From positions 248,001 through 312,000 of the forward strand of contig NZ_FOFV01000009.1 in assembly GCF_900111005.1 (NCBI RefSeq): 64,000 nt of DNA, read 5' to 3'. Source of the stretch: Lentzea albida (GTDB taxonomy: Bacteria; Actinomycetota; Actinomycetes; Mycobacteriales; Pseudonocardiaceae). Below the pieces are notes generated by a model. That model searched no databases and had not been told where the DNA came from. It was given only the letters and a program-made list of their open reading frames with translations. This document shows positions 1 to 48,469 of this stretch, piece by piece (the stretch's first letter is position 1; every line of letters starts with the position of its first letter). The position numbers and the translations under genes were made by a program.

Positions 1-1
1 G

Positions 2-7510: not shown

Positions 7511-7782
7511 GGAACGCTCCTCGACGCTGAATAATCCACTGTGGACTGGACATCGCCGGCGGACGGCGCGTTCGTCGGCAGTGGAACGACGGTACGCCTG
7601 CGACTTCGAGGCCACAGCGGACGCGTACCACGCCGTGGGACCAGGGCGTGATCAACTCGCGGAACACCGCTAGCTTCGCCTCGGACGCTCCACCGCTCAT
7701 CGGTCAGCCGCAGACCGAAGACTTCTCACAGGTACCCGCCCATCGGGATGCGCGTACCCGCAGATCGAGAGGATTCGACCAC

Positions 7783-11392: not shown

Positions 11393-11414
11393 GGTCAGGC
11401 CGATCTGGCCGACC
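11393..11414 (+). terminator. Weak hairpin after the dehydrogenase gene
   Basis: GGTC and GGCC pair with GGCC and GACC around a GATCT loop, with one bulged A. It begins 36 bases after the stop codon. Confidence 0.35.
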
Positions 11415-11789
11415 ACGTGCGTTCAGTTGTCGCCACGGGCGGCGTTCTCGGCTTGAGAGCTGCCCGGCCGTACTCGACGCAAGTGGCGGTCATGCGTGGC
11501 GGTTGCTCGGAACAGTGTGGTGCCCACGCACATTTCACGAGCTCGGCTACGCCGATTACACGATCGAGAGGGTGCGAGCCCTGTTGACCCTCGACGGCAC
11601 TCCACCAGAACTGGGCTTGATGGTGGAGAGCGTCCGAGCGACGTAGCCACTCCGCAGCCGAGTCGGTGCAGCGTGACCTCGCACGCCGGCGTCCTGAGCT
11701 CTCGTTCACTATGGCTGGGCAGTCGGACACGTCGTCGAAGCAGCACTCGTACCCATCTCGAACACGGCCGGCTCACGTGAAGTCGTTGA
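11415..11789. other. Intergenic stretch between convergent genes
   Basis: About 375 bases with no convincing gene. A short plus-strand frame ending at the TAG 11644-11646 encodes a coding-looking peptide of about 39 residues (from ~11528) containing YTIERVRALL, with no good start. It could be a gene remnant. Confidence 0.4.
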
Positions 11790-13025
11790 TCACCTCACCG
11801 TCGTGGCGCCTTCCGGAAAGGAGCGATCCACCGGTACGACCTCGACAGCGAGCTTGGTGTAGCTGCGGGTGACCGCACGGGCCTGCCTCTCGGGCCTGCC
11901 CGCTTCCGTGATGGCGTCCACGCGCGCCGCCAGTTGCCGGAACGCGATCTCGCTCGTCACGAGCGCCAGTTCGGCACCGGCACACCGGTGCGCGCCCAGG
12001 CCGAACGACAGGACGTCCCGCACCGCAGGTTCCAGCGTGTCGAAGCGGTCCACCACGAACACGTCGGGATCGGCGAACCTCGCAGGGTCACGGCCGAGCG
12101 CACCGAAGCACACCAGCACCACGCTGTCGCGGGGAAGCGGCACTCCAGCGAGCTCGGTGTCCTCCGCCGCGACCCTCACGCCGTACTGGATCGGAGGGTC
12201 GTACCTCAGCGTCTCCTGGACGAAGGACCGCAGCAACGCGTCGTCCTCCCGCAGACGCGGCAACAGGTCGTTGCGCGCCGCGAGGCGGCGTACACCGGTA
12301 CCCAGCAGCGATCCCGTGGTCACCGTGCCCGCGCCGAGCAGGAACACCAGGTTGCTCATCAGGTCGCCGGCGCTGAGCCGGCCGTGGCCCGCGAGCGTGC
12401 GGACGAGCGGGGTCCCGCCGCCGGCCGTGGCGTCCAAGTGTTCCACGAGCCGCGTCGCCGCCTCGTCCGCCACCGCGAGCGCCTTGTCCGGTGGGTGCAG
12501 CTCGTTGCGTTCCAGGAAGCTGTTGACCCACCCTGCCAGGATCTCGTCGTCTTGCCGCGGCAAGCCGAGCAACTCGCCCATGACCCCGTTGGGAATCGTC
12601 ATGAACGTTCGCGCTGCGTCCACCACCGCATGGGCAGCGCCGAACGGTGCCGTGCCGGCTTCGGCGTGCCGGGTGATCATCGGTCGCATCCGCGCGACCT
12701 CGCCGGGACCGAAGAAGCGCGCGAGCAGCCGCCGGGCCGGCTGGTTGTCGGGCGCGTTGCGGAAGAGCAGGCTGCGGTAGAGCAAATCGGTCGACGGGAA
12801 CGTGCGCCACGCCGGCCACAGCCGGTCGGCGCAGTGGCGGTCGGGCACCGGGAAGAGCCTGGGGTTCACCAGGACGCCCACGCATTCTTGGTAACCGGTG
12901 ACGAGCAGGCGCTCACGGGTGATCGGCAGGACGGGCCAGCGCTCGATCAGATCCCGGTAGTACGGGTAGGGGTCGACGCGTCCCGCAGGCGACAGCAGGC
13001 CCAGCAGCAGGTCGTGCGGTCCCAT
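11790..13025 (-). CDS. Cytochrome P450
   Basis: 411 residues, typical size for a bacterial class I P450. The I-helix oxygen-activation motif is visible (LGAGTVTT), as are the K-helix ExxR (ETLR) and the heme-binding loop FGLGAHRCAGAEL with the proximal Cys. No ferredoxin or reductase gene is nearby, so generic partners are likely used. The ATG overlaps the stop of the KR-DH gene by one base (TGATG), placing it as the last gene of the PKS operon. It probably hydroxylates or epoxidises the polyketide product or an aryl precursor (inference). Confidence 0.95.
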   Translation of the reverse strand: MGPHDLLLGLLSPAGRVDPYPYYRDLIERWPVLPITRERLLVTGYQECVGVLVNPRLFPVPDRHCADRLWPAWRTFPSTDLLYRSLLFRNAPDNQPARRLLARFFGPGEVARMRPMITRHAEAGTAPFGAAHAVVDAARTFMTIPNGVMGELLGLPRQDDEILAGWVNSFLERNELHPPDKALAVADEAATRLVEHLDATAGGGTPLVRTLAGHGRLSAGDLMSNLVFLLGAGTVTTGSLLGTGVRRLAARNDLLPRLREDDALLRSFVQETLRYDPPIQYGVRVAAEDTELAGVPLPRDSVVLVCFGALGRDPARFADPDVFVVDRFDTLEPAVRDVLSFGLGAHRCAGAELALVTSEIAFRQLAARVDAITEAGRPERQARAVTRSYTKLAVEVVPVDRSFPEGATTVR

Positions 13026-15406
13026 CACGTCACACCGTCCCGTCCGCTCAGCACGAGCCCGGTCAGCGTCACGAGCGCGGTGCCGTCATCGGTGGCGGCC
13101 ACGCCGTTGGCGACGCCCGCCTCGTGGGTCACGTGCAGGCGGACGCTCGTCGCCTGGTCGGCCAGCGCGAGGTCGTTGTGACGGGTGTGCAGACGCACCT
13201 CCGTGATCGAGTGCGGTGTCGCGTACCGATGCGGAACGCCGGTGGCGCAGGCGGTCTGCAACAGCGCGTCGATCAGCAGCCACGGAAGCCGGTGCGAGGA
13301 GAAGAACTCGCGGGCGGTCAGCGACGGCTCCCACCGGGCCGAGGCGGTGTCGTCGGTGACGTGGAAGTCGCGGACCTGGTCGAACAGTCCTGACATGGAC
13401 ATCGTCGCGGGTGCGCGGCGGACACTCGGCTGAGGTGGCTGGAGGCGGACGGGCACGTCGTCGCCGAGCGGAACCGCCAGCTCGACGTGGGTGACGCGGC
13501 GGTCGCCGTTCCCCGCCCCGAGCTGTGACTGGACGGCGACGCGGACCACGCCGCCGTCCGGGCTTGACGGCACGAACGACGCGGCGACGGTGTACTCGGC
13601 CAGCTGCGGGTCGACGGCGACCGGAGCGCCGAACCTGATGTCCTGGAACCTGTCCACGAGACCGTTCCCGGCGAGGTGGTCGGTGGCGTGCGCGGCCAGT
13701 TCCAGTACGAGGGCGCCCGGCACGAGCGCTCGCGACTGGCGGACGTGTCCCCGCAGGTGGTCGTACCGAACGAGGTCCAACGGCCAGACGGTGTCGTCCT
13801 GACGGGTGTGCGGGGGGCTGCTCAGGTAGGGAAGCCGGATGCCGTCGTCGACCAGGCCGGGGAAACGCGTCCTCACCAGCCGCCGCTCCGCCTCGCCGAG
13901 CAGGACCGGCGAGGGGTGCCGCCCGATGCGGTCCGGCGCGACCAGGCTCGTGAACAGCCGCTGCCCTTCCGCGTCACCGAGGAGGCCGAGCTGCCCGGTC
14001 TTCGCCGTGTAGTCGGTGAACCCGGTGCGCGGACCGATCCCGGACTCGCCCCACAGGCTCCACCCGATCGCGCACTCGGCGGGCGAGCCGCGGCCCTGCT
14101 CGTAGCGGGCGGCGGCGTTGAGCACGTCGTTGGCGGGTCCGTAGTCGATCTCACCGGGCAGGCCGAACGCTCCGGCGACGGAGCTGAAGGTGCACCACGC
14201 CGATGGCGCGGGGTCGCGGAAGGCGGCCTTGAGGTTGTGGTGACCCGCGATCTTGGTGTCGCGCACCCGGCGGAACGTCGCGAGGTCCTTGGACTGAAGA
14301 CGGCGAGCGCCGCCGATTCCCGCTCCGTTCACGAGGAGGTCGATGCGCGACGAGTCCGCCGCGACCGTCGCCGCCGCACGCCGGACAGCGGCCGGATCGG
14401 TGACGTCGCACCCGAGGTAGCGCACCCGCTCCGCGCCGATCCGCTCGCGCAGGGCCTCGATGGTCGTGAGCGATTCGCGCGCCTGGCGGGCCCGGTCGTA
14501 GGTCGCCCGCAGCGTTGCGATGTGGACGCTCGGGTCCTCAAGGCGTTTCGCCCGCACGTAGTCGGCACCGCTGAGGTCACCGATCTCCGCGGACAGGGCA
14601 GCCATGGCCTCCGGTTCGGTGCTGCCGAGCAACCACAGCATCGAGGGCGGAGGGCTCATGCCTTCAAGACATCGCGCGGTGATGCCCCGCGCACCTCCGG
14701 CAGCGACCACCACGGGACCCTCGGCATCCGAGTGGCCGACGGCCGCGGCGAGTTCGCCGAGTGGGACGAGCCGTTCCTCCCACCGGCCCACCGGAACCGA
14801 CGCCGTGCGGTAGTAGGCGACGGGCAGGCCCTTGGCGCAGCCGGACTCCACGCGGAGCTGGGCCACTGCGCCGGAGAAGCCGGCATCGGTGACCAGGGCG
14901 TGCACGTGTGTCTCCGGCAGCTCCCACACGACGGACTTCGCCAGGCCGGTCAGCAGCGCGCAGTGCGGGTGCGGCACTCCCCCGTCCAGGCGGTCCAGCA
15001 CCAGGATCGCCACCGACGAGTCGTCGTGAGCGGAGCCGGCCAGCCGTTTCAACGCGACGAACACCGTCTCCTGCAGAGCGACCAGGCCCTGCCGGGGCGG
15101 GGCGGGCCACTCGGCGTCGCGCAGGGACGTGATCACGCGCAGGTGACCGCCGACCGGCCCCGCCGCGGCGAGGAGGCCTGTCACCGTTTCCTCGTCCGAG
15201 GTGGCCATCGTCTCCGGTACGAGCACGACCGTGACGCTGTGTCCGGCGGTGGCGCGTACCCGGTCAGCGATCTCCGCGTCGTCGGTGAGCACGAGCGCGC
15301 CGGGCGGCAGCGGCTCGCGTTCGGGGACCTGAGGCGTCGCGGGGCGTGCCACCAGCCTCAGCGCGTACGGCTGAACCACCCCTGCTGCCACGACGGCGGA
15401 CGTCAT
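13025..15406 (-). CDS. Ketoreductase-dehydratase (KR-DH) subunit of an iterative PKS
   Basis: 793 residues, two catalytic units. A structural Rossmann half (~30-230) precedes the catalytic KR at ~230-455, with NADP loop GGARGIT at 237-243, a Lys near 385, Ser408/409, Tyr422 and Asn426. A double hot-dog dehydratase follows (~535-793): catalytic His554 nine residues before Pro563-Gly564 (canonical HxxxGxxxxP, with Ser instead of Gly) and catalytic Asp713 in LLIDALLQTA. No KS, AT or ACP is present, so it acts in trans on chains held by the neighbouring ACP. It would reduce each beta-keto group and dehydrate to a trans alkene. No enoylreductase gene is seen, which favours a polyene. It starts at ATGA overlapping the KS-CLF stop. 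Confidence 0.88.
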   Translation of the reverse strand: MTSAVVAAGVVQPYALRLVARPATPQVPEREPLPPGALVLTDDAEIADRVRATAGHSVTVVLVPETMATSDEETVTGLLAAAGPVGGHLRVITSLRDAEWPAPPRQGLVALQETVFVALKRLAGSAHDDSSVAILVLDRLDGGVPHPHCALLTGLAKSVVWELPETHVHALVTDAGFSGAVAQLRVESGCAKGLPVAYYRTASVPVGRWEERLVPLGELAAAVGHSDAEGPVVVAAGGARGITARCLEGMSPPPSMLWLLGSTEPEAMAALSAEIGDLSGADYVRAKRLEDPSVHIATLRATYDRARQARESLTTIEALRERIGAERVRYLGCDVTDPAAVRRAAATVAADSSRIDLLVNGAGIGGARRLQSKDLATFRRVRDTKIAGHHNLKAAFRDPAPSAWCTFSSVAGAFGLPGEIDYGPANDVLNAAARYEQGRGSPAECAIGWSLWGESGIGPRTGFTDYTAKTGQLGLLGDAEGQRLFTSLVAPDRIGRHPSPVLLGEAERRLVRTRFPGLVDDGIRLPYLSSPPHTRQDDTVWPLDLVRYDHLRGHVRQSRALVPGALVLELAAHATDHLAGNGLVDRFQDIRFGAPVAVDPQLAEYTVAASFVPSSPDGGVVRVAVQSQLGAGNGDRRVTHVELAVPLGDDVPVRLQPPQPSVRRAPATMSMSGLFDQVRDFHVTDDTASARWEPSLTAREFFSSHRLPWLLIDALLQTACATGVPHRYATPHSITEVRLHTRHNDLALADQATSVRLHVTHEAGVANGVAATDDGTALVTLTGLVLSGRDGVT

Positions 15407-17652
15407 GACGGCGGGAGCACGTGGACGGCAGGACCGGACTCGGCCGAGAACCACCGTGGAAACTCTCCGCGCACGACGCACCGCACGACGTCGAGCACGC
15501 CGTCCGCGGCCCGGTAGCGACCGCTTCCGCGGCGCGACGGCTCCGGCGCCGGGCCGAGATCGGTCCGGACTCGCGCGAGCACCTCCCAGCCACGGGCCGT
15601 GGCGATCTCCCGGCGGGTGAGCGCGACCGCGACCGCACCTTCGGCGACGTCCTCCTCCCCGAGGCCGAGCGAGCGTGCCGCGTCCTGCGGCGCGGAAGCG
15701 TTCCACGCCATGACCAGGGCGAGGTCGACGTCGCCGCGCCGCAGGTAGCTACCCGCTGTGTGCAGCGCGGCGAGCCCGGACGTCTCACCGGTGTCGACCA
15801 TCATCGTGGGACCGCGCAGGTTCCTCCGGTTGCTGACCCAGCCGAGAGCGGTGGACGACATTCGTCCGACCAGGCTGTAGGGGCTGATGGGCGCGACTCG
15901 TCCGCGAAGCTCGGCCAGGTAGGCCGCGGCGGCCGCCTTCTCCTCGCCTTCCAGCGTCTCCACGAACCCATCACCCAGGCACAGCACGGTGGACTCGACG
16001 GCCGACGTGCTGAGGCCGTACTGGGCGCCGAACACGCCGGTGCGTTCCTCGACCCCCTCCCAGAGGGGCGCACCGCCGGCCGGACCGGCGAGTCTGCTCG
16101 CCAGCTCGGCGGTGAGCAGCTGGCTCATGTCCAGCGCGGCCGCCACCTTGGGCGTGATCAGCGTGTCCGGGAACGGGGGAAGCGGATAAGGGGACTCGAA
16201 ACGGGTGTCGTCGGCCGGCTCGTCACCTCGGGCCAGCCGGGCCGCGATCTCGTCGTCCGACGGCTTGCCCGGCAGCAACGCGCTCCACCGCACGAGCACC
16301 AGCTCGTCGCCGAGGTCCGGCGGGGCGGACCGCACGTCGCCCACCTGTCCGTGGGGCGAGCGGAGCAGCTGGTACCCGTTGATGCCGCCGAGCCCGCAGG
16401 CGAACACCCCGACGTACGAGGAGTCTTCCTCCGGCAGCGGCACCGGCGCCGAGGGCACCCGCAGAGACAGTGAGCGGGCGTACTCCGGCAGCTCCACGTG
16501 GTTCGGCTGCCGCGGCACCGTCGACCGGTGCAGGCCGGCCGCGGCCTGGATGAGCGAGACGACACCGCAGGCCATGCCGGTGTGACCGAGATACCCCTTG
16601 TTCCCCGTCACCCACGGTTCGCCGCCGGGGTGAGCGGCCGCGATGGACCGCAGCTCCGTCGCGTCTCCCGCCAGCGTCGCCGTCCCGTGCCCGATCACCC
16701 ACGAGACCTCGGCGCCGGTCACGCCGTTGACCGACCTCGCCCGCGTCATCGCGCGGGTCTGTCCATCCTGGCTCGGCGCGAAGATGGCCTTGCTCTTGCC
16801 GTCCGAGGCGGCACCGAACCCGGCGAGCACGGCCAGCACGTCGTCGCCGTCCCGCAGCACGTCGCTCCACCGCTTGAGCACCACCACGCCGGCGCCCTCG
16901 GAGAACACCGTGCCGTCCGCGTCCACGTCGAAGGCACGCAGCTGTCCGGAGCGCGACAGGGTGCCCATTTCGGCGAAGTACACCTGCCGCAGTGGCCCGT
17001 GCGAGCTCACTCCCCCGCAGAACGCGACATCCACCGCGCCGTCCAGCAGGTGCCGGACCCCGAGGTCCACCGAGTACAGGGCGGACGGGCAGATGTTGTT
17101 CGACACGAGCGTTCTCGTGTCCGGCGGGAGCAGTCCGCGGGCAGCACGCGCGACCTGCCTGTGGGGGAAGAACTCGGTGTGTCCACGGCCCACGCAGGCG
17201 TCCGACTCGGCGAACCTGCGCCGGATCGCCTCGTACCGCTGGGCACGCCCGTTCTCCGGCGACCGCGCGGCGGCCTGTGCCGCGAGCGTGTCCGCGGCGA
17301 GCGCCAGGTCCATCTCGTAGCTCGTGTCGGTCGACGCGGAGACGAACAGACCCGTGCGGCCGGCCGGGGCGGACGTGGTGGCGAGGCACTGCCACAGGGC
17401 ATGGCGCAGCCACCCCACCTGGAGATCACCTGACCCGTCGGCCGTGAGGTCCCGCACCTCCCCGTACCTGAGGTCGTAGGGCAGACCGGTTTCGCTGTGC
17501 TTCAGCGTGGAGGCCAACCCGGTCCCGCCGAAGCGGTCGGAACGGCCGAACACGATCGGGCCGTCCTGTGCCCGCCGCCACAGCTCTTCGACGTTCTCGC
17601 AACCCGGCGTCACGACACCGGCCGCGATGAGACAGACCCGGTCGGTGTGCAC
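15403..17652 (-). CDS. Ketosynthase fused to chain-length-factor-like ketosynthase (KS-CLF)
   Basis: 749 residues made of two ketosynthase folds. The first (~1-430) has a complete active site: Cys188 in NNICPSALYSVD, His322 in GHGTATLAGD, Lys352 and His357 in NKGYLGHTGMA. The second (~445-749) is KS-like, but at the position of the nucleophile (usual DTACSS) it reads DTGETSG, so Cys is Glu623, and both catalytic His motifs are missing. That is the pattern of a chain length factor. A KS-CLF pair in one chain is known from PUFA-type synthases. Start is GTG 17652, three bases after the AT-ACP stop. It catalyses repeated condensations of malonyl units. The N terminus is otherwise a standard thiolase fold. 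Confidence 0.88.
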   Translation of the reverse strand: MHTDRVCLIAAGVVTPGCENVEELWRRAQDGPIVFGRSDRFGGTGLASTLKHSETGLPYDLRYGEVRDLTADGSGDLQVGWLRHALWQCLATTSAPAGRTGLFVSASTDTSYEMDLALAADTLAAQAAARSPENGRAQRYEAIRRRFAESDACVGRGHTEFFPHRQVARAARGLLPPDTRTLVSNNICPSALYSVDLGVRHLLDGAVDVAFCGGVSSHGPLRQVYFAEMGTLSRSGQLRAFDVDADGTVFSEGAGVVVLKRWSDVLRDGDDVLAVLAGFGAASDGKSKAIFAPSQDGQTRAMTRARSVNGVTGAEVSWVIGHGTATLAGDATELRSIAAAHPGGEPWVTGNKGYLGHTGMACGVVSLIQAAAGLHRSTVPRQPNHVELPEYARSLSLRVPSAPVPLPEEDSSYVGVFACGLGGINGYQLLRSPHGQVGDVRSAPPDLGDELVLVRWSALLPGKPSDDEIAARLARGDEPADDTRFESPYPLPPFPDTLITPKVAAALDMSQLLTAELASRLAGPAGGAPLWEGVEERTGVFGAQYGLSTSAVESTVLCLGDGFVETLEGEEKAAAAAYLAELRGRVAPISPYSLVGRMSSTALGWVSNRRNLRGPTMMVDTGETSGLAALHTAGSYLRRGDVDLALVMAWNASAPQDAARSLGLGEEDVAEGAVAVALTRREIATARGWEVLARVRTDLGPAPEPSRRGSGRYRAADGVLDVVRCVVRGEFPRWFSAESGPAVHVLPPS

Positions 17653-17655
17653 GGT

Positions 17656-18879
17656 TCAGGCCTGTCCCGCCGCGCCCGCGTCCCTGACCATCCCGGCGAC
17701 CGAGCGGACGGTGATCGTCGCGGGCGACTCGGCACGGGCGAGGTCGACCGACCACCGCTCGGCCGCCTTCACCAGCACCAGGCGGTGCTGCAGGGAGTCG
17801 AGCCCGAACTCCGCCTCGAGGTCCACGTCCGGAGTCACCATCTCCGCCGGGATCTGCAGCGCGGCGGCGTAGTCCTCGCGCAGGTGGCCGATCATGTCGT
17901 CGTTCGAGTCGGTCATGGCGTGCTCCTCGTGACTGGTGAGGTGGGCGGTGATCTGACGGATCTCGGCTTCGGCCGACCGTTTTCTGAACGGCGCGGACAC
18001 GCGCACCCGGTCACCGAGCGTCGCGGTGACCAGCCGTGTCGACGTGTCCTTCACACCGCATTCGACGAACTCGCCGACCCCGGCCGACCGCAACTCGGCG
18101 ACGGCGCCGCGAAAGTCCAGTGGCCGCACCATCTGGAGGGCGGCGAGCAGGACCAGATCGTCCTCCGGCTCGAGAGCCCTGGCGAGCACCGGGGACCAGA
18201 CCGCGGTGCGCAGCGGCGCGGCCTGGACGCCTCGCACGGACTGGAGGTAGCGCTCGAACGCGGGCTCGAGAGCGGGGTGGTGCTGGGCGTATGGCCCCGC
18301 GCGCAACGGAGTCACGGTGACGCCTCGGGCGCCGGCGAGGTCTCCGAGTCGCATCATCTGGTCAGCGGGACCGGACAGAACCACCTGTGCGGGACTGTTC
18401 ACCGCCGCGACTGAAACGCCTTCCGCCTGTTCGGCGAACGCCCTTCCCTCCTGTGGCGACAGCATGAACGCCGCAGTCGCGGCATCGTCATCCGCGTGGG
18501 CCGCGAGCGCGACGGCGCGTTCGCACAGCAGGAACGCACCGTCCTCGACGGTAAGGCCGTTCGCGGCCACCAATGCGGTGATCTCGCCGAGGCTGTGCCC
18601 GAGCAGAACGTCCGGGCGAACCCCGAACTCGTCCAGGAGGACTCGGTAGCAGGCCAGTTGCGCGTGGTAGGTCTGCAGTTCGAGCAGCGGGCTCCACGAG
18701 CTGAGATCGGGTCCGGTCAAGACGGACGGCCAGCCGTAGCCCGACGTGACGGCGTCGATCCGCCTCGCGATCCCGGCGGCGATGCCACGGCCGGCCGGGC
18801 AGTAGGCGAACGGATCGGCGAAAACGGCTCCCGCACCGGAGAAGCAGAAAGCTGTCCGCCAGCCTGCGGAGGTGGGCAT
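17656..18879 (-). CDS. Acyltransferase-acyl carrier protein (AT-ACP) of an iterative PKS
   Basis: 407 residues. The AT domain (~5-290) has its nucleophile Ser96 in GHSLGE, an Arg near 121 and a His200 in YAQHHP, at the site where malonyl-type enzymes usually read HAFH. The oxyanion motif normally written GQGxQ reads GAGAV. The ACP (~322-407) has the phosphopantetheine Ser362 in FGLDSLQ. Start ATG 18879 has GGAGGAGGAAG directly upstream. It leads the PKS operon: AT-ACP, KS-CLF, KR-DH, P450, with junctions of +3, -4 and -1 bases. It should load extender units and carry the growing chain. Malonyl specificity is assumed, not shown. Confidence 0.87.
   Translation of the reverse strand: MPTSAGWRTAFCFSGAGAVFADPFAYCPAGRGIAAGIARRIDAVTSGYGWPSVLTGPDLSSWSPLLELQTYHAQLACYRVLLDEFGVRPDVLLGHSLGEITALVAANGLTVEDGAFLLCERAVALAAHADDDAATAAFMLSPQEGRAFAEQAEGVSVAAVNSPAQVVLSGPADQMMRLGDLAGARGVTVTPLRAGPYAQHHPALEPAFERYLQSVRGVQAAPLRTAVWSPVLARALEPEDDLVLLAALQMVRPLDFRGAVAELRSAGVGEFVECGVKDTSTRLVTATLGDRVRVSAPFRKRSAEAEIRQITAHLTSHEEHAMTDSNDDMIGHLREDYAAALQIPAEMVTPDVDLEAEFGLDSLQHRLVLVKAAERWSVDLARAESPATITVRSVAGMVRDAGAAGQA
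17914..17928 (-). promoter_or_regulatory. Internal ribosome-binding site and start that could make a free ACP
   Basis: Inside the AT-ACP gene, exactly at the domain boundary, GAGGAG lies six bases before an in-frame ATG at 17916. Starting there gives an 86-residue stand-alone ACP with Ser41 as the carrier serine. This would supply extra ACP relative to the AT-ACP fusion, or it may be an accidental match. Confidence 0.45.
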
Positions 18880-19189
18880 CTTCCTCCTCCGGTCGGATGC
18901 CGGGACAGCCGGTACTCGGTCGTGCACCGGCATGGTACGAACACGCTCACACCGCAACCAAGGCACTGTCTCGTACGTTGGGACCACTGCGCATGGAACC
19001 CGCGACTGTCATCACCCCTTGTCCTCGTTGGAGGCTGTTGCACGACGCTTGGACCCCTCGCGGGCGCCGTGAGCGCGCTCGGGTGTCCGAGCATGAAGGA
19101 GGCCTCCTCGAACAGGCGGCCGATCTCGTCGTCGTGCATGGATGTCACGACGATCTGGCTCTTCAGCCAGCCGGCACCGGATGCAGCTC
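18880..19189. other. Spacer between PKS operon and SDR remnant, possible gene debris
   Basis: No complete gene. It should contain the leader of the AT-ACP gene. On the minus strand a coding-looking stretch around 19040-19150 contains MHDDEIGRLFEEASFMLGH, without a clear start or end. Together with the neighbouring SDR fragment it may be decayed sequence. Confidence 0.4.
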
Positions 19190-19407
19190 CTACCCGACCA
19201 CAGGACCGAGGCCGAGCGGTTCTCGGAGACCGGTCGTCTCGCCGCAATGCGATCCGTGCATCAGGTCGAGCATTTCGTCGCGGGCTTGCCGCAGTGACCC
19301 GGGCTCCCCGCCGGTGATGACGACCGCCGCTCCGGCGCGGCACATCTCCTCCGCGAAGACGCGACCGAACCCTGCGGCTCCACCCGTGACCGGAACCCTC
19401 TGCTCAT
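19190..19407 (-). pseudogene. Broken short-chain dehydrogenase (SDR) gene
   Basis: The ATG at 19407 overlaps the ligase stop as ATGA, the junction style of a real operon gene, but its own frame gives no recognisable protein. One frame over, immediately after the start, the sequence encodes an SDR N terminus: VPVTGGAAGFGRVFAEEM followed by AGAAVVITG (the glycine-rich NAD(P) motif and second strand). Removing one base in the AGAGGG stretch would join the start to this frame. Homology fades after about 50 residues and a TAG ends it at 19190. The gene therefore appears frameshifted and truncated, or the window has a sequencing error. An intact version would have been a pathway ketoreductase. Confidence 0.6.
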
Positions 19408-20939
19408 CGCGTTCCTCCGGCGCCGACGTCGTTCAACTGGTGCACCAGCGCTTTGCCCATGGCGGAACGCGGAATCCGGTCGACCGCGGTGATCGACCGG
19501 ATCTTCTTGTAGGGCGCGACCCGGCACGCCACGAAGTCGGTCACCTCGGACAACGCCACCGGCCCGCTCAGCACGACGTATGCGACCGGGATCTCGCCCG
19601 CGACCTCGTCCGGCGCTCCGGTCACGACGGCGTCGGCGACGTCGGGATGGCTGAGCAGCACGGATTCCAGCTCAGCGGGCGCGATCTGGTGGCCCTTGTA
19701 CTTGATGAGCTGTTTGATCCGGCCGACGATCGTGACGTGTCCGTCCCGCTCGCGCCGGGCGATGTCACCCGTGTGCAGCCAGCGCTCGTCGTCGGCGAGG
19801 CCGTGCACGGTGCCGTCCTCGCCCAGGAAGCCCGGCGACACCTGCGGGCCGCGAACCCAGATCTCCCCGGTCTCCCCGTCCAGTCCGGTCGCCGGGTCCA
19901 CGAGCCGGATCTCGGTGTCGGGCAACGCCTTGCCGATCGAGGTCGGCACCGCAGGGATGCCGTCGGGCGGGGCGAAGGTGCACCCGGCTTCCGTCATGCC
20001 GTAGCCCTGCACCACCGGCACACCGAGCAGGCGGGCACAGCTCTGGGCGACGTTCGCGGGGAGCGGGGCGCCACCTGAGTAGACCAGGCGCAGGCTGCTC
20101 GTGTCGCGGCCACCGGTGCCGCCGCGGCGGGCGAGCTCCGCGAGGATGCTCGGCACCAGGTACGCGACGGTGATCTTCTGCGTTTCGATGACCTCCACCA
20201 GGTCGTCGATGTCGAAGGGAGTGCGGACCGTGACAAGTGTGCCGCCCGCGCGAAGCGTGGGGTTCATCGCCATCTGCATGCCGTAGATGTGCCGGAACGG
20301 TGTCGTGGCGAGCACGACGTCGTCGGCGGCGAGCCGGTGCACCGCGCCGATCTGGTCCAGGTTGGACACCAGGTTGCGGTGCGTGAGCACGATCTGCTTC
20401 GGGAGCCCGAGGGACCCGCTCGAGGTGGCGAGCAGCGCCGGCCGTTCGCCTCCGACGGCCGGGCCCGCGTCGACGACCGATACGTCGAGCCACTGGTGCC
20501 AGCCGATCGTCCTGCCGTCAGACGACGACTCGTCGAGCACGACCACGGTGCGCAACGACGCGGCCGACGGGAGAGCGGACAGCTGCCGCCACGACTTCGA
20601 CGAGGCGACCACATGGGCGACACGGCACTGTTCCAGCACTGGCTGCCACTCGTCCGGGGTGCCGAGCGGTTCGAGAGGGAGCACGACGCCACCTGCGAGC
20701 AGGGTGCCGTGGTAGGCCACGACGAACTCGGCCGTGTTGTCGCACACAAGTGCAACAACCTCGTCCGGACGATGGAGCCGTGGACGCAGTGCGGCGGCGA
20801 ACCGTTCAGCAGCTCGTTTCAGCTCCGGGTACCGATACGAGCGTCCGCCGCTGTGCTCGATGAGCGCTGTGCGCTGGGACGTGGCGTCCTGCCAGACCGA
20901 CTCGGCGAGGTTCCTCGTCCAGTGCCCGTATGTCGTCAT
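19404..20939 (-). CDS. 4-coumarate:CoA ligase-like AMP-dependent acyl ligase
   Basis: 511 residues of the ANL superfamily. Visible cores are a P-loop-like TSSGSLGLPKQIVLTHRN (A3), PFRHIYGMQ (A4), a YSGGAPLP/QGYGMTEAG region (A5), the WLHTGDIA Asp (A7), GRIKQLIKYKGHQIAPAELE (A8) and the C-terminal catalytic Lys in PRSAMGKALV (A10). The HIYG and GRIKQLIKYKGHQ motifs are typical of 4-coumarate:CoA ligases and related medium-chain ligases. It would form an aryl-AMP and then a CoA or ACP thioester. Start ATG 20939 has GGAGAAGG upstream. It is divergent from the ammonia-lyase gene, which fits activation of the cinnamate-type product of that lyase. Confidence 0.87.
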   Translation of the reverse strand: MTTYGHWTRNLAESVWQDATSQRTALIEHSGGRSYRYPELKRAAERFAAALRPRLHRPDEVVALVCDNTAEFVVAYHGTLLAGGVVLPLEPLGTPDEWQPVLEQCRVAHVVASSKSWRQLSALPSAASLRTVVVLDESSSDGRTIGWHQWLDVSVVDAGPAVGGERPALLATSSGSLGLPKQIVLTHRNLVSNLDQIGAVHRLAADDVVLATTPFRHIYGMQMAMNPTLRAGGTLVTVRTPFDIDDLVEVIETQKITVAYLVPSILAELARRGGTGGRDTSSLRLVYSGGAPLPANVAQSCARLLGVPVVQGYGMTEAGCTFAPPDGIPAVPTSIGKALPDTEIRLVDPATGLDGETGEIWVRGPQVSPGFLGEDGTVHGLADDERWLHTGDIARRERDGHVTIVGRIKQLIKYKGHQIAPAELESVLLSHPDVADAVVTGAPDEVAGEIPVAYVVLSGPVALSEVTDFVACRVAPYKKIRSITAVDRIPRSAMGKALVHQLNDVGAGGTR

Positions 20940-21593
20940 ACCTTCTCCTGCCGCTCGCACACGGGCGCATCGAGGAACCCCCCGCCGCTCCGGGACGCGG
21001 CCCAGTCCATGCCCGGCTTCGTCACTTGACGGCTACATCAGGCGCCCACTGCGGGCAGCGTGCCCGGACCGCGCTCCGGAGCGGCAGGACGGTGACGACA
21101 CTAGAGGCAGGACGAGCAGAACACCCCTGTGGACTTCCGCAGTTGTCGCTCGTCCGGCCGCGGATGCCGCGCAGGCTCGTGCCCGTGGATCGCGATCCGG
21201 GCGGTGGACGCGTTCGCGATCTGGCCGGTGCTCGGTGCCGGCGTCGTGACACGACCACCTGGACACGAGCGCCCGAGAGTCGGTTGTGGACAGTCGCGGC
21301 ACCGTTCCCGCTTGACCGATGGCGTTGCTGTGCCCGACACCTGTCGAACCGCTGCGCGAGCGACGTCCCAGCTCGTGGAACGATGGGCAGACAGCGCGCG
21401 GCTGCCGACACACAATCGGCCGGTGGACATCGAAAGCACAACACCTACCTCCGTCAGGTGGATCACGTCGTTCGCGCCGTGGTCACCGACCGGTTTGGGA
21501 GGCGAGTGGAAGCACCGGGTGGTGCGCGGCCCCGGTCTCACGCCGGTCACCTGGTGACTTCGTCTCAACCCACCATCACCCACTGGAGCTCGC
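20940..21593. promoter_or_regulatory. Long divergent intergenic region between ligase and ammonia-lyase genes
   Basis: 654 bases with no gene I can support; open frames here lack domains and start sites. It must hold divergent promoters for the ligase operon (leftward) and the ammonia-lyase/methyltransferase operon (rightward). TTGAC hexamers occur at ~21026 and ~21312, but I cannot pair them confidently with -10 boxes. The length leaves room for regulator sites. Confidence 0.5.
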
Positions 21594-23168
21594 ATGTCGA
21601 CGGTTCACGACATCGTCACCCACGACGTCACCCTGCCGGGCCGGATCGACGCGGTGATGCTGGAGCGGGCGAGCGGGGTGCTCGACGTCGGGTTGTCCGA
21701 GTCCGGCCGCGGTGAGCTCGAACGCTGCCGCCGGTTCGTCGACTCGGTCGTCGCCGACGGCCACGAGGTGTACGGCGCCACCACGGGGTTCGGTCCGCTG
21801 GTGACCTACGCCGGCCGGGACACCGCGGCCGGGCAGTGCGACAACACTCTGCAGCACCTCACCGCAGGACAGGGCGCCGACCTGCCGATACCCGTGGTGC
21901 GGGCGACGGTCCTGGCTCGCCTGGCGTCGCTGACCAAGGCCAGGTCCGGTGTCACACCCTCCGTTGTGGACGGTCTGACCGCGATGCTGCGCACGACGTT
22001 CACCCCGGCGGTGCCGACCTACGGGTCGGTCGGAGCCAGCGGTGACCTCGTCCCGCTGGCCTACGTCGCACAGGCACTGCGTGGCACCGGTCACGCCTAT
22101 GTGGACGGTGCGCGGCTGCCCGCGGCCGAGGCGTTGCGGGCGGCCGGACTCACGCCGCTGGAGCTCGACGGGCGCGACGCGCTCGCCCTGGTCAACGGCA
22201 CCTCGCTGACCGCTGCCACCGCGGGTCTCGCGTGGCGGTCGATCGGCCGTTCGCTGCACACCGCCGCCGCGTTGAGCGCGCTGCTGGCGGACGTGCTCGG
22301 CAGCACCACCGCGTTCCTCGACCACCGGCTGCTCGCCGCGTTCGGCCACGCCGCCGCCGGTGAGGTCGGCGCACGCATGACCGCGATGCTCGACGGAACC
22401 CGACCGACCGGCCTGCGGCCGCTGCAGGAGCCGTACAGCGTCCGGTGCACCCCGCAGCTCCTCGGCGCCGCGACGTCGGCGCACCGGTATGCGGGCGGGG
22501 TGGTGCACGACGACCTGAACGGGGTCAGCGACAACCCGCTGTTCTTCGTCGACGACGAGGCCGTCGCGCACGGCGGCAACTTCTTCGGCCAGCCCTGCTC
22601 GTTCGTGAGTGACCTGCTCACCACGGTCGCGGTGCAGGTCGGCAACCTCACCGAGCGGCAGCTGGATCTGCTCGTCGACCCCAACCGGAACACCGGACTT
22701 CCGCCGATGCTGTCACCGTGTCCTGGTGTGCACCACGGGGTCCAGGGCGTGCAGCTGGCGTCGACGGCGATCGTGGCGGCGATGCGCCGGCAGGCGGTGC
22801 CCGCGAGCGTGCAGAGCCTCCCGACGAACCTGCACAACCAGGACATCGTCCCGTTCGGCACGCAGGCGGCGCAGAACGCGTGGGAGACCGCGCGGTTGCT
22901 GCGGCACCTGCAGGGCGGTCTGGCGGTCGCGCTGCGGCAGGCGGTGCACCTGCGCGCCGACCGGCCGACCGCGCCGTTCTGCGCCGGCCTCGCCGACCGG
23001 CTGGCCGAGGTGGTCCCGCCGATCGAGCAGGACCGGCCGCTGGACGCCGACGTGCGCCTGGCGGCCGGCGTCGTGGACGCCTACGTCGCCGGTGCCGGGA
23101 TGGCCGAGCCCGGTGACCCCGGTGGTTCCGGGGACGTCACGACCGCAGCGTGGAACCAAGGCCTCTGA
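21594..23168 (+). CDS. MIO-type aromatic amino acid ammonia-lyase, predicted tyrosine-specific
   Basis: 524 residues, the normal length for bacterial HAL/PAL/TAL enzymes. The cofactor-forming Ala148-Ser149-Gly150 lies in GSVGASGDLVPLAYV, the catalytic Tyr60 in YGATTGFG, and the NGTS, LQEPYSVRC and NLHNQDIVP blocks are present. The selectivity pair, at the place where HAL has Ser-His, reads His88-Leu89 (TLQHLTAGQG). This equals His89-Leu90 of Rhodobacter TAL and predicts L-tyrosine as substrate, giving p-coumarate, or caffeate from L-DOPA. Tyrosine 2,3-aminomutases share the fold and this pair, so a beta-tyrosine product is an alternative. The adjacent 4CL-like ligase and CCoAOMT-like methyltransferase favour the lyase. 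RBS GGAG is 6-9 bases upstream. Confidence 0.88.
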   Translation: MSTVHDIVTHDVTLPGRIDAVMLERASGVLDVGLSESGRGELERCRRFVDSVVADGHEVYGATTGFGPLVTYAGRDTAAGQCDNTLQHLTAGQGADLPIPVVRATVLARLASLTKARSGVTPSVVDGLTAMLRTTFTPAVPTYGSVGASGDLVPLAYVAQALRGTGHAYVDGARLPAAEALRAAGLTPLELDGRDALALVNGTSLTAATAGLAWRSIGRSLHTAAALSALLADVLGSTTAFLDHRLLAAFGHAAAGEVGARMTAMLDGTRPTGLRPLQEPYSVRCTPQLLGAATSAHRYAGGVVHDDLNGVSDNPLFFVDDEAVAHGGNFFGQPCSFVSDLLTTVAVQVGNLTERQLDLLVDPNRNTGLPPMLSPCPGVHHGVQGVQLASTAIVAAMRRQAVPASVQSLPTNLHNQDIVPFGTQAAQNAWETARLLRHLQGGLAVALRQAVHLRADRPTAPFCAGLADRLAEVVPPIEQDRPLDADVRLAAGVVDAYVAGAGMAEPGDPGGSGDVTTAAWNQGL

Positions 23169-23196
23169 GCCGCCGCACCGATCGAGGAGGTCTGGC

Positions 23197-23895
23197 ATGA
23201 GCGTGACCCTGAACGGCGCCACCCAGGTGGACAAGCGGATCCGGTTGACGCCCGAGATCCTCGACTACGTCCTCACCTGCACCGAGCAACCGGTGCCGGT
23301 GCAGCAGTGGCTGATCGACGCCACGACCGCGCTCGGGCAGGTAGCCGAGATGCAGGTCGCCCATGAGCAGGCGGTGCTGTTCACCCTGCTCGCGGCTGCG
23401 AGCAAAGCACACCGGATCGTCGAGGTCGGCACGTTCACCGGCTACTCCGCGCTCGCATTCGCCAGAGGCATGCCCGCCGAGGGCGTCATCGACACCTACG
23501 ACATCACCGACAAGTGGTCGTCGACCGCGCGGCGGGCCTGGCAGGAGGCCGGGTTCGCCGACCGCATCCGCCAGCACATCGGTCCGGCGGCGGACCTGCT
23601 CGACCAGCTGCCTCCTGAGCCGGCCGTGGGCCTCGTGTTCATCGACGCGGACAAGGTGAGCTACATCAGGTACTGGGAGCAACTGGTGCCCCGGGTCGTC
23701 GACAACGGACTGATCATCGCCGACAACGTGCTGTACGCCGGTGAGGCGACCAGCGTCCACGCCGAGGGCAACGCCGCTGCCATCCGCACGTTCAACGAGC
23801 ACGTGCGGGCCGACGACCGGGTGCAGGCGGTCATGCTGCCGCTGGCCGACGGGCTGACCATCGCGCGCAAACTACCCGCCGGGTACCGGCGATGA
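23197..23895 (+). CDS. Caffeoyl-CoA-type catechol O-methyltransferase
   Basis: 232 residues, the size of class I, Mg2+-dependent caffeoyl-CoA O-methyltransferases. The SAM motif I is EVGTFTGYSALAFA. The metal/substrate residues sit in FIDADKVSYIRYW and IIADNVLYAG (Asp-Asp-Asn set), and an N-terminal helix ends QVAHEQAVLFTLL. The family transfers a methyl group from SAM to the 3-hydroxyl of a catechol. The start has GAGGAGG upstream, 28 bases after the ammonia-lyase stop, so the two genes form an operon. A catechol substrate would need 3-hydroxylation of tyrosine or coumarate, for which the next gene or the P450 are candidates. Confidence 0.9.
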   Translation: MSVTLNGATQVDKRIRLTPEILDYVLTCTEQPVPVQQWLIDATTALGQVAEMQVAHEQAVLFTLLAAASKAHRIVEVGTFTGYSALAFARGMPAEGVIDTYDITDKWSSTARRAWQEAGFADRIRQHIGPAADLLDQLPPEPAVGLVFIDADKVSYIRYWEQLVPRVVDNGLIIADNVLYAGEATSVHAEGNAAAIRTFNEHVRADDRVQAVMLPLADGLTIARKLPAGYRR

Positions 23896-23924
23896 TCTGA
23901 CGAGGACGGTCTGAGCGCGGGCAC

Positions 23925-23963
23925 GGGGTATCGAGCTGACCGAGTCGGCCAGCTCGATCCCGG
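23925..23963. terminator. Bidirectional terminator hairpin
   Basis: A perfect 9-bp stem (23930-23938 with 23950-23958, ATCGAGCTG/CAGCTCGAT), flanked by GGGG and CCC that extend it after one bulged T. It lies in the 99-base gap between convergent stop codons. Confidence 0.7.
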
Positions 23964-23994
23964 TTCCGCCGGGACGGACGGACAGCCGGGACGT

Positions 23995-24828
23995 TCACGG
24001 CAGGGCGACCCCGATGGGCGCCTCGGCCGCCAGGGGCTCGCCGACGACGGCGATCAACTCGTCGACCATGCCGGGGAGGTCGGTGGGCAGAAGGGCGAAC
24101 ACATCGGCCCTCGCGTCGATCGGATCAGCGGCGAGGTCGTCCCGGACCGCGCCCAGCCGCGTCAGCATCGCGGCGGTGAAGCCGGCTTGCGTGACCGCTT
24201 CCCGGTGTACCAGGAAGAACTCGTCGAACAGGTCGCGTTCCGCGTCCGTGACGCCGTTGGCCGCGCGGCCTCCGTGGCCCTTGAACAGCGAGGCACCTCC
24301 GGGCACCAGCATCTGCGCCACGGTCATGTGCACCAGGCGGTTGCGCTTGAGCGCTCGCTTGAGCACGCCGTCGCGAGGCAGGCTCAGCGTGCTGAGCAGA
24401 CCGGCCACCCACTCGTGGTCGCGGGCCCACAGTCCGCTGAACGCCGGGTGCGTCGCGGCCATCCGCGGACGGATGGACCGGGCGTAGACCTCCGGGGTGC
24501 AGCTGCCCGCGTAGAGCAGCAGCGCGCTGTAGCAGTCGTACCACCACGCCGCCCGTGCCGTGCCGGCCTCGGACAGGCCGCCGGTTCGTCCCGCGTCGGC
24601 GAGCACGTCCGCGAGCATGCGCCACACGCCGAACGTCAGGTGGTGGCCGATCATCCAGCGGTAGAACGCCCGATCCGAGTCGTCGGCCGCCACCCTCGCG
24701 ACGGGTGCGGACGCCTTCGGCGCCACCGGACCGGTTCCGAAGACGGGGTCCGGCTCGGCCAGCGGCTCGCCGGGCATCGGCAGGCACAGGACGTCGAGCC
24801 CGAGCGGTCGCTCGCGTGCGGTCGTCAT
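23995..24828 (-). CDS. Alpha-helical protein, possible heme-dependent tyrosine hydroxylase (LmbB2-like)
   Basis: 277 residues, mostly helical. Notable blocks are RAFYRWMIGHHLTFGVWRML (two adjacent His), WWYDCYSALLLYAGSCTPEVY, then an MAATHPAFSG helix and a late GRAANG loop. There is no signal peptide or membrane segment. The length, the His-rich aromatic helices and the position beside a tyrosine-type ammonia-lyase and a catechol methyltransferase recall the LmbB2/Orf13 L-tyrosine 3-hydroxylases of the heme-dependent aromatic oxygenases. I recognise this only loosely. If correct, it supplies L-DOPA and explains the catechol methyltransferase. Start ATG 24828 has a weak ribosome site. It is transcribed convergently toward the methyltransferase gene. 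Confidence 0.45.
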   Translation of the reverse strand: MTTARERPLGLDVLCLPMPGEPLAEPDPVFGTGPVAPKASAPVARVAADDSDRAFYRWMIGHHLTFGVWRMLADVLADAGRTGGLSEAGTARAAWWYDCYSALLLYAGSCTPEVYARSIRPRMAATHPAFSGLWARDHEWVAGLLSTLSLPRDGVLKRALKRNRLVHMTVAQMLVPGGASLFKGHGGRAANGVTDAERDLFDEFFLVHREAVTQAGFTAAMLTRLGAVRDDLAADPIDARADVFALLPTDLPGMVDELIAVVGEPLAAEAPIGVALP

Positions 24829-25234: not shown

Positions 25235-25456
25235 ATGGTGAAGAAGTTGATCGCCGGTGCCGCACTCGCGTGCGCTTCGCTCGTGGTGGTCGCCCCGGCC
25301 GCGCACGCCGCGTCGTTCGCGGGCGTCTACCCCAACCACGACGCGGCGGTGAAAGCCTGCAAGCAGGGCGTCGCCCAGGGTCGTTGGTACAACACGTGCA
25401 TGTACCAGGCTTACCCCAACTCCAAGCAGGTCGGCCTCTGGGTCCAGCCCCGGTAG
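25235..25456 (+). CDS. Small secreted protein, function unknown
   Basis: 73 residues. A classic Sec signal peptide (KKL, a hydrophobic core ~5-22, then AHAA) predicts cleavage near residue 27. The mature part is ~46 residues with two Cys (ACKQG and NTCMY), which may form one disulphide, and several Tyr/Trp/Asn. Start ATG 25235 follows GAGAGGAA. It is followed directly by a strong hairpin, so it is probably a monocistronic, well-expressed transcript. I do not recognise the family; similar tiny secreted proteins are common in actinomycetes. Confidence 0.8.
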   Translation: MVKKLIAGAALACASLVVVAPAAHAASFAGVYPNHDAAVKACKQGVAQGRWYNTCMYQAYPNSKQVGLWVQPR

Positions 25457-38695: not shown

Positions 38696-38698
38696 CGC

Positions 38699-47705: not shown

Positions 47706-47795
47706 GGTGGTGCCTTCGTGTTGCGCGGGTGCACTGCCCGCAGGGCCGACAGGGGTGGGACGCGACGCCGGGGAGGCCGTTGCTCGGACGACGCC

Positions 47796-48392: not shown

Positions 48393-48432
48393 GGTCACAG
48401 CCCTTCTCTTCGATCGGTGTCACAGCGGAACG

Positions 48433-48463: not shown

Positions 48464-48469
48464 GGGGGC

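What the first reader, a model, noticed from the sequence alone, without database searches (positions are those of the whole stretch)
13025..24828. Putative aryl-polyene pathway built from a tyrosine ammonia-lyase and a split PUFA-synthase-like PKS
Seen: a MIO lyase with a Tyr-type His-Leu pair, a 4CL-like ligase, a CCoAOMT-like methyltransferase, KS-CLF, KR-DH and AT-ACP, plus a P450, with no enoylreductase. Known: flexirubin-type aryl polyenes start from a tyrosine-derived aryl acid and use KS, KR and DH iteratively, while KS-CLF fusion and PS-type DH are PUFA-synthase traits. Inference: p-coumaroyl, caffeoyl or feruloyl starters are extended by malonate into conjugated polyenes. The combination of phenylpropanoid starter genes with this compact type I-like trio in an actinobacterium is not one I recognise.
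Basis: partly seen in the sequence, partly recalled or inferred. Interest (0 to 1): 0.85.

Follow-up and report, generated by a model that had tools for sequence, protein, structure and literature searches.

The report
Phenylpropanoid-fed polyene synthase in Lentzea
A soil actinobacterium carries genes that probably turn tyrosine into caffeic- or ferulic-acid-type building blocks, beside a compact, portable polyketide synthase that could lengthen them into a pigment-like polyene; the parts are real, but the product and the partnership are not proven.

Summary
The genes are real and intact: a Tyr-type MIO lyase, a 4CL-like ligase, a CCoAOMT-like methyltransferase and a coupled AT-ACP / KS-CLF / KR-DH / P450 operon without a recognisable enoylreductase, in a Lentzea genome. 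A heme-dependent tyrosine 3-hydroxylase homologue (23995-24828) points to L-DOPA, caffeate and ferulate. A salicylate-synthase-like gene tracks the cassette. The PKS operon is a portable four-gene unit inserted between older genes: decayed remnants lie at both junctions, and Lentzea G272 carries the same blocks on three contigs. Partnership of cassette and PKS is supported: the window-type cassette is in 3 of 24 Lentzea genomes, all with the PKS unit; a second KS-CLF clade (about 37% identical) is linked to the same cassette in two genera; L. flava has the unit beside a methyltransferase and 4CL fragments. It is not proven: G272 keeps them apart, and few KS-CLF PKS of the family have the cassette nearby (5 of 54 places). 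The window's PKS clade is a long branch, found intact only in Lentzea, with altered KS (NICPS), CLF (Glu), AT (YAQH) and ACP motifs. It works like flexirubin initiation but is no member of those dissociated systems. Product unknown.

The parts
1167..4010 (+). LAL-type LuxR regulator (AAA_16 + GerE)
   Evidence: Pfam; syntenic in G282 and G272:C129; 41-47% homologues beside C15-type PKS
4024..5367 (-). salicylate-synthase-like chorismate-binding enzyme
   Evidence: TIGR03494 316 bits, just under its cut-off of 325; window-type copy in exactly G000, G282, G272 of 24 Lentzea
5629..6465 (+). IclR-type regulator
   Evidence: Pfam IclR_C, HTH_IclR
7648..9468 (+). acyl-CoA oxidase/dehydrogenase-like enzyme
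   Evidence: Pfam ACOX_C_alpha1, Acyl-CoA_dh_1; membership in the pathway unproven
9478..10359 (+). alpha/beta hydrolase
   Evidence: Pfam; membership unproven
10356..11357 (+). Zn alcohol dehydrogenase
   Evidence: Pfam ADH_N, ADH_zinc_N; membership unproven
11405..11718 (.). remnant of an unnamed gene that stands as an open frame left of the cassette in G272 (left junction of the inserted PKS unit)
   Evidence: 80% nt over 317 bp to G272:C97 1996-2312; other fragments of the same gene at the same place in G282
11790..13028 (-). cytochrome P450; heme Cys and ExxR motifs present, I-helix AGTVTT without the usual acidic residue (consensus recalled)
   Evidence: Pfam p450; motifs the same in G282 and G272
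13025..15406 (-). KR-DH protein
   Evidence: Pfam KR; KR Ser/Tyr/Lys and DH His/Asp in place; DH fold. Start chosen at the ATG overlapping the KS-CLF stop
15403..17652 (-). KS-CLF protein; KS Cys-His-His present, Glu at the place of the Cys in the CLF
   Evidence: Pfam ketoacyl-synt N and C; alignment A1
17656..18879 (-). AT-ACP protein (start uncertain)
   Evidence: Pfam Acyl_transf_1, PP-binding 20.6 bits against cut-off 20.8; GHSLGE, YAQH and GLDSL motifs
19268..19399 (-). remnant (44 codons) of an SDR gene; right junction of the inserted PKS unit
   Evidence: 70% aa identity to G272 SDR residues 2-45; longer, open homologue in G282
19404..20939 (-). 4-coumarate:CoA-ligase-like enzyme
   Evidence: Pfam AMP-binding; best solved relatives plant 4CL
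21594..23168 (+). tyrosine (or DOPA) ammonia-lyase-like MIO enzyme
23197..23895 (+). caffeoyl-CoA/caffeate O-methyltransferase-like enzyme
23995..24828 (-). heme-dependent L-tyrosine 3-hydroxylase homologue
   Evidence: phmmer to 7kqr E 2e-26 and 8r2s E 4e-25; no Pfam or NCBIfam hit
25235..25456 (+). small protein of unknown role (signal peptide by eye)
   Evidence: no Pfam hit; conserved next to the cassette in G272 (89%)

Best explanation
The locus makes a phenylpropanoid-primed, partly reduced polyketide. TyrH hydroxylates L-tyrosine to L-DOPA, the MIO lyase deaminates it (or tyrosine) to caffeate (or coumarate), the OMT methylates it to a ferulate-type acid or its CoA ester, and the 4CL-like ligase makes the CoA thioester. 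KS-CLF takes this starter and extends it iteratively with the acyl unit loaded by AT on ACP; KR and DH work each cycle and, with no ER, leave conjugated double bonds, giving a short (hydroxy/methoxyphenyl)polyene acyl-ACP whose length is set by the CLF. The P450 tailors it. Shown here: gene families, catalytic residues, operon coupling, co-distribution. Inferred: every reaction, the order, the starter hand-over, chain length, release and product. The salicylate-synthase-like gene may add a second aromatic unit.
For: Families and residues. All 24 Lentzea genomes held were searched: window-type TyrH (80% or more) in 3 (G000, G282, G272), all among the 4 with window-type KS-CLF (also G182); a second TyrH type (47-49%) in 4 (G000, G253, G286, G051), the same 4 that hold a C15-type KS-CLF as grouped by the tree. 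The carriers' nearest rpoB neighbours are mostly non-carriers, in a tree of 23 of these genomes with weak deep nodes. The second KS-CLF clade, not sister to the window's, has TAL-TyrH-OMT-4CL within 15 kb in G231 and G015 (another genus) and G253; TyrH-OMT-4CL without a TAL about 20-24 kb away in G000:C15 and about 36 kb in G286; the cassette on another contig in G051. L. flava: the PKS unit stands beside an OMT and 4CL fragments. Since the insertion both blocks stayed intact in window and G282 (dN/dS 0.17-0.36) while the gene at the left junction decayed in both.
Against: G272 holds cassette, salicylate-synthase block and PKS unit on three contigs (C97, C129, C1), with other genes (isochorismatase, LCM methyltransferase, Iso_dh) beside the cassette where the window has the PKS. 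Its cassette genes are close to the window's (dS 0.17-0.23) but its PKS unit is far (dS 0.51-0.73), so the two have separate histories. Only 5 of 54 KS-CLF places listed in 297 family genomes have a listed TAL match within 30 kb (both lists are lower bounds). Of 29 named KS-CLF loci read with up to 10 kb flanks none has a TAL or TyrH hit and one, L. flava, an OMT. The cassette also occurs without this PKS in the 15-20 kb stretches read (G032, G218, G213, G269, G268), and TyrH is in 23 of 24 Lentzea. No thioesterase or second KS was seen in the window's 1-26 kb.
Confidence: 0.45

Rival explanations
1. Two neighbouring pathways. The cassette with the salicylate-synthase block is an older pathway making an aryl product of its own; the four-gene AT-ACP/KS-CLF/KR-DH/P450 unit is a portable polyene or fatty-acyl synthase that landed between them and uses an ordinary short-chain starter.
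For: Junction remnants show insertion; G272 carries the blocks on separate contigs, the PKS unit flanked by unrelated genes; block histories differ; 49 of 54 listed KS-CLF places in the family have no listed TAL within 30 kb.
Against: Window-type cassette only in genomes that hold the PKS unit (3 of 3, of 24); linkage seen again in L. flava and in a second KS-CLF clade.
Confidence: 0.3
2. Decoration model. PKS and phenylpropanoid genes serve one product, but the caffeoyl/feruloyl (and salicyl) groups are attached as esters or amides to a scaffold, and the PKS makes a separate acyl chain.
For: Salicylate-synthase-like genes are co-distributed in both systems: window type in G000, G282, G272; a second clade in G000, G253, G286, G051, plus G266, which has no KS-CLF at the threshold used. 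The C15-type clusters also hold PKS modules, a glycosyltransferase-like protein and, in G253, long multienzymes nearby that read like NRPS/PKS (named partly by eye).
Against: No amide synthase, condensation domain or glycosyltransferase was seen among the window's 1-26 kb genes scanned; only one AMP ligase is there for two aryl acids.
Confidence: 0.17
3. Salicylate-primed polyene: the 4CL-like ligase activates salicylate from the salicylate-synthase-like enzyme as the PKS starter, and the cassette serves something else.
For: Salicylate-synthase-like gene about 10 kb from the KS-CLF; a salicylate-AMP ligase is among the ligase's solved relatives.
Against: The ligase scores far higher against plant 4CL (252 bits) than against the salicylate-AMP ligase (152 bits) and sits next to the TAL; the window enzyme is under the TIGR03494 cut-off.
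Confidence: 0.06

Closest known systems
Flexirubin initiation (FlxA TAL + FlxY CoA ligase) and aryl polyene pathways
   Same: Tyrosine-derived hydroxycinnamate made by a TAL, activated as CoA ester, extended with KS, KR and DH into a polyene (PMC3992019, abstract and passages seen; the extension steps are that paper's proposal).
   Different: Those PKS are dissociated FAS-like/type II enzymes with several KS and thioesterases; here KS-CLF, KR-DH and AT-ACP are fused pairs, with an added tyrosine 3-hydroxylase and no DAR partner seen. The window TAL scores 257 bits against the FlxA model with cut-off 700; [quoted passage not shown]
Type II polyene PKS of actinomycetes (skyllamycin, ishigamide; named in passages of PMC11446937)
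   Same: KS-CLF with KR and DH for reduced chains in actinobacteria.
   Different: Separate KS and CLF proteins there, fused here; no TAL cassette in the passages seen ('tyrosine ammonia' has 0 hits in that text).
PUFA synthases (Pfa) and hybrid PUFA-type lipids
   Same: KS-CLF fusion, KR with GGARGIT motif and PS-type DH (the likeness to Pfa is recalled).
   Different: No recognised ER and no PfaA-like long protein; the KS scores higher with Pks13-type models than with PfaA, partly because two stretches match. Passages of PMC13291983 describe pfa-type clusters, not this layout.
[SDR-]KS-CLF-KR-DH plus AT-ACP family, e.g. own C15 locus, Saccharothrix carnea, Umezawaea endophytica, Streptomyces achromogenes, Burkholderia puraquae
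   Same: Same domain order, AT upstream.
   Different: Relatives are mostly one long protein, many with an N-terminal SDR; the window clade is split, lacks that SDR, is 34-39% identical to the aligned relatives and has altered motifs.

Membership tests
Aryl polyene / flexirubin pathway | Tyr-type ammonia-lyase and aryl-CoA ligase as starter enzymes | tested here: met
   (sequence only; no activity)
Aryl polyene / flexirubin pathway | Dissociated type II KS, CLF, KR, DH and ACP proteins, with further KS and thioesterase | tested here: not met
   KS-CLF, KR-DH and AT-ACP are fused; no second KS or thioesterase seen in 1-26 kb
Aryl polyene / flexirubin pathway | Aryl polyene product | not testable with these tools
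   needs chemistry
PUFA synthase | PfaA-type KS | tested here: not met
   PfaA model 109 bits against cut-off 1010; other type I PKS models score higher
PUFA synthase | Enoylreductase (PfaD) partner | tested here: not met
   no PKS-type or PfaD-type ER among the predicted genes of 1-26 kb that were scanned; a Zn-ADH of the MDR superfamily is present
KS-CLF-KR-DH / AT-ACP iterative PKS family | KS-CLF followed by KR-DH with an AT protein upstream | tested here: met
KS-CLF-KR-DH / AT-ACP iterative PKS family | Catalytic residues KS C-H-H, KR S-Y-K, DH H-D, AT S-H, ACP Ser | tested here: met
Heme-dependent tyrosine hydroxylase | Homology to solved enzymes | tested here: met
   7kqr, 8r2s
Heme-dependent tyrosine hydroxylase | Heme binding and 3-hydroxylation of tyrosine | not testable with these tools
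   needs assay
Salicylate synthase | Curated TIGR03494 score | tested here: inconclusive
   316 bits against cut-off 325; the C34 copy passes with 438

The most novel reading that the evidence does not exclude
The window's four-gene unit is a new branch of iterative KS-CLF synthase retuned for caffeoyl/feruloyl starters: KS nucleophile context NICPS instead of TACSS, Glu at the CLF's lost Cys, YAQH in the AT and GLDSLQH in the ACP changed together on one long branch. It travels as a portable polyene-extension module that is repeatedly recruited by a tyrosine/DOPA phenylpropanoid cassette, giving methoxylated and perhaps methyl-branched feruloyl-polyenes, perhaps joined to salicylate, in Gram-positive bacteria.
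Probability: 0.3. Interest if true: 0.7.

Novelty: new variant of a known kind. Interest (0 to 1): 0.5.

Why it matters
If the cassette feeds the PKS, an actinobacterium has reached the flexirubin/aryl-polyene logic with a compact, fused synthase and with a tyrosine 3-hydroxylase that shifts the starter to catechol/guaiacyl type. The natural comparisons (G272 with the blocks apart, L. flava with a decayed ligase, a second clade with the same cassette) make starter recruitment by iterative PKS directly testable, and the four-gene unit is small enough for heterologous expression.

Tried and rejected
Histidine or phenylalanine lyase for the TAL: the His-Leu pair and the best solved relative speak for tyrosine, although the histidine-lyase model gives the highest family score (352 bits, under its cut-off of 524); an aminomutase is not excluded (259 bits, cut-off 501). 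PUFA synthase proper: rejected on KS scores and lack of ER. Enediyne PKS: relatives of about 1950 aa suggested it, but the alignment runs through KS and CLF where an enediyne PKS would have an AT (that layout is recalled). Degraded copy: rejected by dN/dS and intact residues. A known product name: searches of open-access papers gave none in the listings; subscription papers are missing, so 'not in print' is not claimed. Plasmid-borne relatives: 15 records, all under 60% identity. Distribution: a sample of 394 genomes of the class gave no window-type copy besides the window's own; a decayed, rearranged copy of about 65% sits in G093.

Rows and limits: searches scored only 3, 5 and 2 first-look candidates per genome, so their counts are lower bounds; searches scored 40-45 or all. 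The 5 of 54 count was recounted by script from the typed lists. One search used 48 rows of those held: partial rows (L017 of G093, L031, L033) and a number of named loci were left out; Dictyobacter L144 was kept with 17 stops as X and its place is unsure. One search had rpoB from 23 of 24 genomes (G286 missing). G230 also has a 39% KS-CLF, outside the C15 clade and without a second TyrH. Core-type TyrH hits (42-48%) overlap the second type (47-49%) in identity; they were told apart by score and place, and one further copy (G213:C3) fits neither set. In L. flava an in-frame stop parts AT from ACP, so they are two proteins there or the gene is broken. The salicylate-synthase groups were checked with a tree of 18 rows: the four C15-set rows form a clade (93/92) with G266 next to it. 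Linked loci travel together, so hypergeometric figures (0.002 and 9e-5) overstate the case; of the carriers only G272, and perhaps the contig-split G051, are independent of linkage.
Full report
What is there. The window lies in a Lentzea genome (G000:C17:248001-312000; genus). Reading leftward, four genes are coupled: AT-ACP (17656-~18879), KS-CLF (15403-17652), KR-DH (13025-15406) and a P450 (11790-13028), with 4-base overlaps at two of three joints. To the left are an ADH, an abhydrolase, an acyl-CoA oxidase-like enzyme, a protein with a weak GH32-type match, an IclR regulator, a salicylate-synthase-like enzyme and a LAL regulator.

Quality of the parts. The lyase carries Ala-Ser-Gly and the His-Leu pair aligned with the solved 2o6y. 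The ligase's best solved relatives are plant 4CLs. KS keeps Cys-His-His; the CLF has Glu where the Cys would be. KR Ser, Tyr and Lys and DH His and Asp are in place in the window. Pfam gives the DH and ACP only near-threshold scores; the DH model (mean pLDDT 78, 14-row alignment) matches PKS dehydratases. Against G282 the 11 compared genes have dN/dS 0.17-0.36.

The PKS family. Over 297 genomes of the family, 41 have a match at E 1e-60 or better, in 54 places listed (3 candidates scored per genome). Most of these places lie in frames of 1000 aa or more; those read are KS-CLF-KR-DH proteins, many with an N-terminal SDR, with an AT-ACP upstream. In a 48-row tree the window clade (window, G282, L. 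flava G182, G272) is a single, fully supported group on a long branch (1.53 changes per column), its place among the others being unsure because long branches meet. Its members share NICPS in place of TACSS at the KS nucleophile, HGTAT in place of HGTGT, GLGGIN or GLGGVN in place of GFGGTN, YAQHH in the AT where relatives mostly have xFHx, and, in the three whose ACP was in the alignment, GLDSLQH where relatives mostly have GIDSIxQ or GVDSVKQ. G093 of another genus keeps a broken copy of about 65% with NICPS. A class-wide sample of 394 genomes gave no other window-type copy.

Does the cassette belong to the PKS? For: all 24 Lentzea genomes held were searched. Window-type KS-CLF (74% or more) is in G000, G282, G182, G272; window-type TyrH (80% or more) is in G000, G282, G272. 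The C15-type KS-CLF (38-39%, grouped by the tree; G230's 39% copy falls outside) is in G000, G286, G253, G051, and the second TyrH type (47-49%) in the same four. In an rpoB tree of 23 of these genomes the carriers' nearest neighbours are mostly non-carriers, deep nodes being weak. In another genus G231 and G015 have TAL-TyrH-OMT-4CL within 10 kb or so of a C15-type PKS, and G253 within 15 kb; G000:C15 and G286 have TyrH-OMT-4CL at about 20-36 kb without a TAL beside it, and G051 has the cassette on another contig. PKS-linked TALs need four changes on the TAL tree, and the two KS-CLF clades are not sisters, so the association probably arose more than once. In L. flava the PKS unit, cut by the contig end inside the P450, stands beside an OMT (64%) and 4CL fragments.

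Against: few members of the PKS family have the cassette; 5 of 54 listed places have a listed TAL within 30 kb, and of 29 named loci read with up to 10 kb flanks none has a TAL or TyrH hit and only L. flava an OMT (one of them, L120, is G286, whose cassette part lies beyond that flank). The cassette occurs without this PKS in the 15-20 kb stretches read of G032, G218, G213, G269 and G268. TyrH is in 23 of 24 Lentzea; in G000 the C19 copy stands with TAL, OMT, a luciferase-like oxidoreductase and a 4CL, with no PKS hit in the 35 kb read. In G272 the cassette is on C97 beside isochorismatase, LCM methyltransferase and Iso_dh genes, the LAL-to-ADH block on C129 and the PKS unit on C1 among unrelated genes; C129 and C97 both begin near these blocks, so they may join in a gap.

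How the locus arose. Between ADH and P450 the window keeps 317 bp (80%) of a gene that stands in G272:C97 left of the cassette, and G282 keeps other fragments of the same gene at the same place; between AT-ACP and 4CL the window keeps 44 codons of an SDR whose longer, open copies stand beside 4CL in G282 and, with an internal gap, in G272. The blocks on either side are 86-90% identical in nucleotides to G272:C129 and G272:C97 over their longest matches, the PKS unit only 77% to G272:C1. dS agrees: 0.17-0.23 for the TAL, OMT, 4CL and TyrH genes, 0.51-0.73 for PKS-unit genes. So a four-gene unit replaced genes between two older blocks, most simply before the window and G282 parted. Both sides stayed intact afterwards.

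A third partner. The salicylate-synthase-like gene of the window type (78% or more) is in exactly G000, G282 and G272 of 24; a second clade is in G000:C34, G253, G286 and G051, the C15-type set, plus G266, which has no KS-CLF at the threshold used. In G000 and G286 that copy lies on another contig than the PKS. In all, 12 of 24 genomes have some copy at E 1e-40 or better, several of them more distant, so the enzyme family is not special to these clusters. A chorismate-derived aryl unit may be part of these products.

Mechanism. Inferred, not shown: Tyr to DOPA to caffeate to ferulate to CoA ester, then iterative extension with KR and DH and no ER. The extender is uncertain: GHSLGE looks malonyl-like, YAQH lies between the malonyl (HAFH) and methylmalonyl (YASH) signatures (signatures recalled). 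Release is unexplained: no thioesterase was seen.

Comparison with the known. Flexirubin in Chitinophaga starts with a characterised TAL and 4CL and is proposed to be built by dissociated FAS-like enzymes (PMC3992019, abstract and passages). NaPDoS2 treats aryl-polyene and polyene KSs as type II and PUFA KSs as iterative type I classes (PMC9582728, passages). A Lentzea genome survey lists 15 hglE-KS and 15 arylpolyene regions; the passages found with my terms do not discuss this locus, and 'ammonia-lyase' has no hit in that text (PMC9120177). Of PMC11446937 and PMC13291983 I saw passages; other papers were seen only as listings. I found no description of this combination in the listings of searches, which cover open-access papers only.

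Verdict. Real, coherent and under selection; partnership likely but unproven; a new variant of known aryl-primed polyene biosynthesis if it holds.

Noticed in passing
L011:6141-11999 (G000:C17 about 242140-248000), apparently running on into window 1-265: One open frame of over 1950 aa combining MaoC, SDR, FkbH, a phosphopantetheine site and an AdhE-type acylating aldehyde/alcohol dehydrogenase; its 3' part is syntenic in G282, and it was not seen within about 5 kb beyond the LAL in G272:C129. A fusion I do not recognise; it could make or release a glycerate-derived unit.
   Followed up: partly
L106 (G000:C19:415000-434999), 11936-17636: A TAL, TyrH, OMT, luciferase-like oxidoreductase, 4CL locus; TyrH of this or another type in 23 of 24 Lentzea, so probably a genus-wide phenylpropanoid pathway of unknown product.
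   Followed up: partly
L009, L010, L105 (G000:C15:1-55000) and L108, L056, L247 (G253:C41): A second, larger cluster with SDR-KS-CLF-KR-DH, AT-ACP, a PKS module, LALs, 4CL (about 750 aa in G253), OMT, TyrH and, by eye, a glycosyltransferase and a multicopper oxidase; in G253 also HMG-CoA reductase and salicylate synthase; a DHQ-synthase-like protein was scanned in G231 and its like seen by eye in G253.
   Followed up: partly
L043:9718-11667 (Lentzea flava G182): A P450 followed by what reads like an isopentenyl-transferase (cytokinin-type) gene near the PKS unit; family named by eye only.
   Followed up: no
window 37322-48772: Type VII secretion genes: EccB (37322-38695) and EccC (40099-44175), with small proteins further on.
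   Followed up: no
window 29242-31287: Hsp70-like ATPase with a galactose-binding Exop_C domain.
   Followed up: no
L047:13265-14630 (G093): Broken copy of the window-type KS-CLF, one CLF piece inverted, in another genus.
   Followed up: partly
L122, L126, L135, L146: Genes that read like wax-ester-synthase/DGAT acyltransferases near KS-CLF PKS of Saccharothrix and Streptomyces achromogenes; family named by eye only.
   Followed up: no
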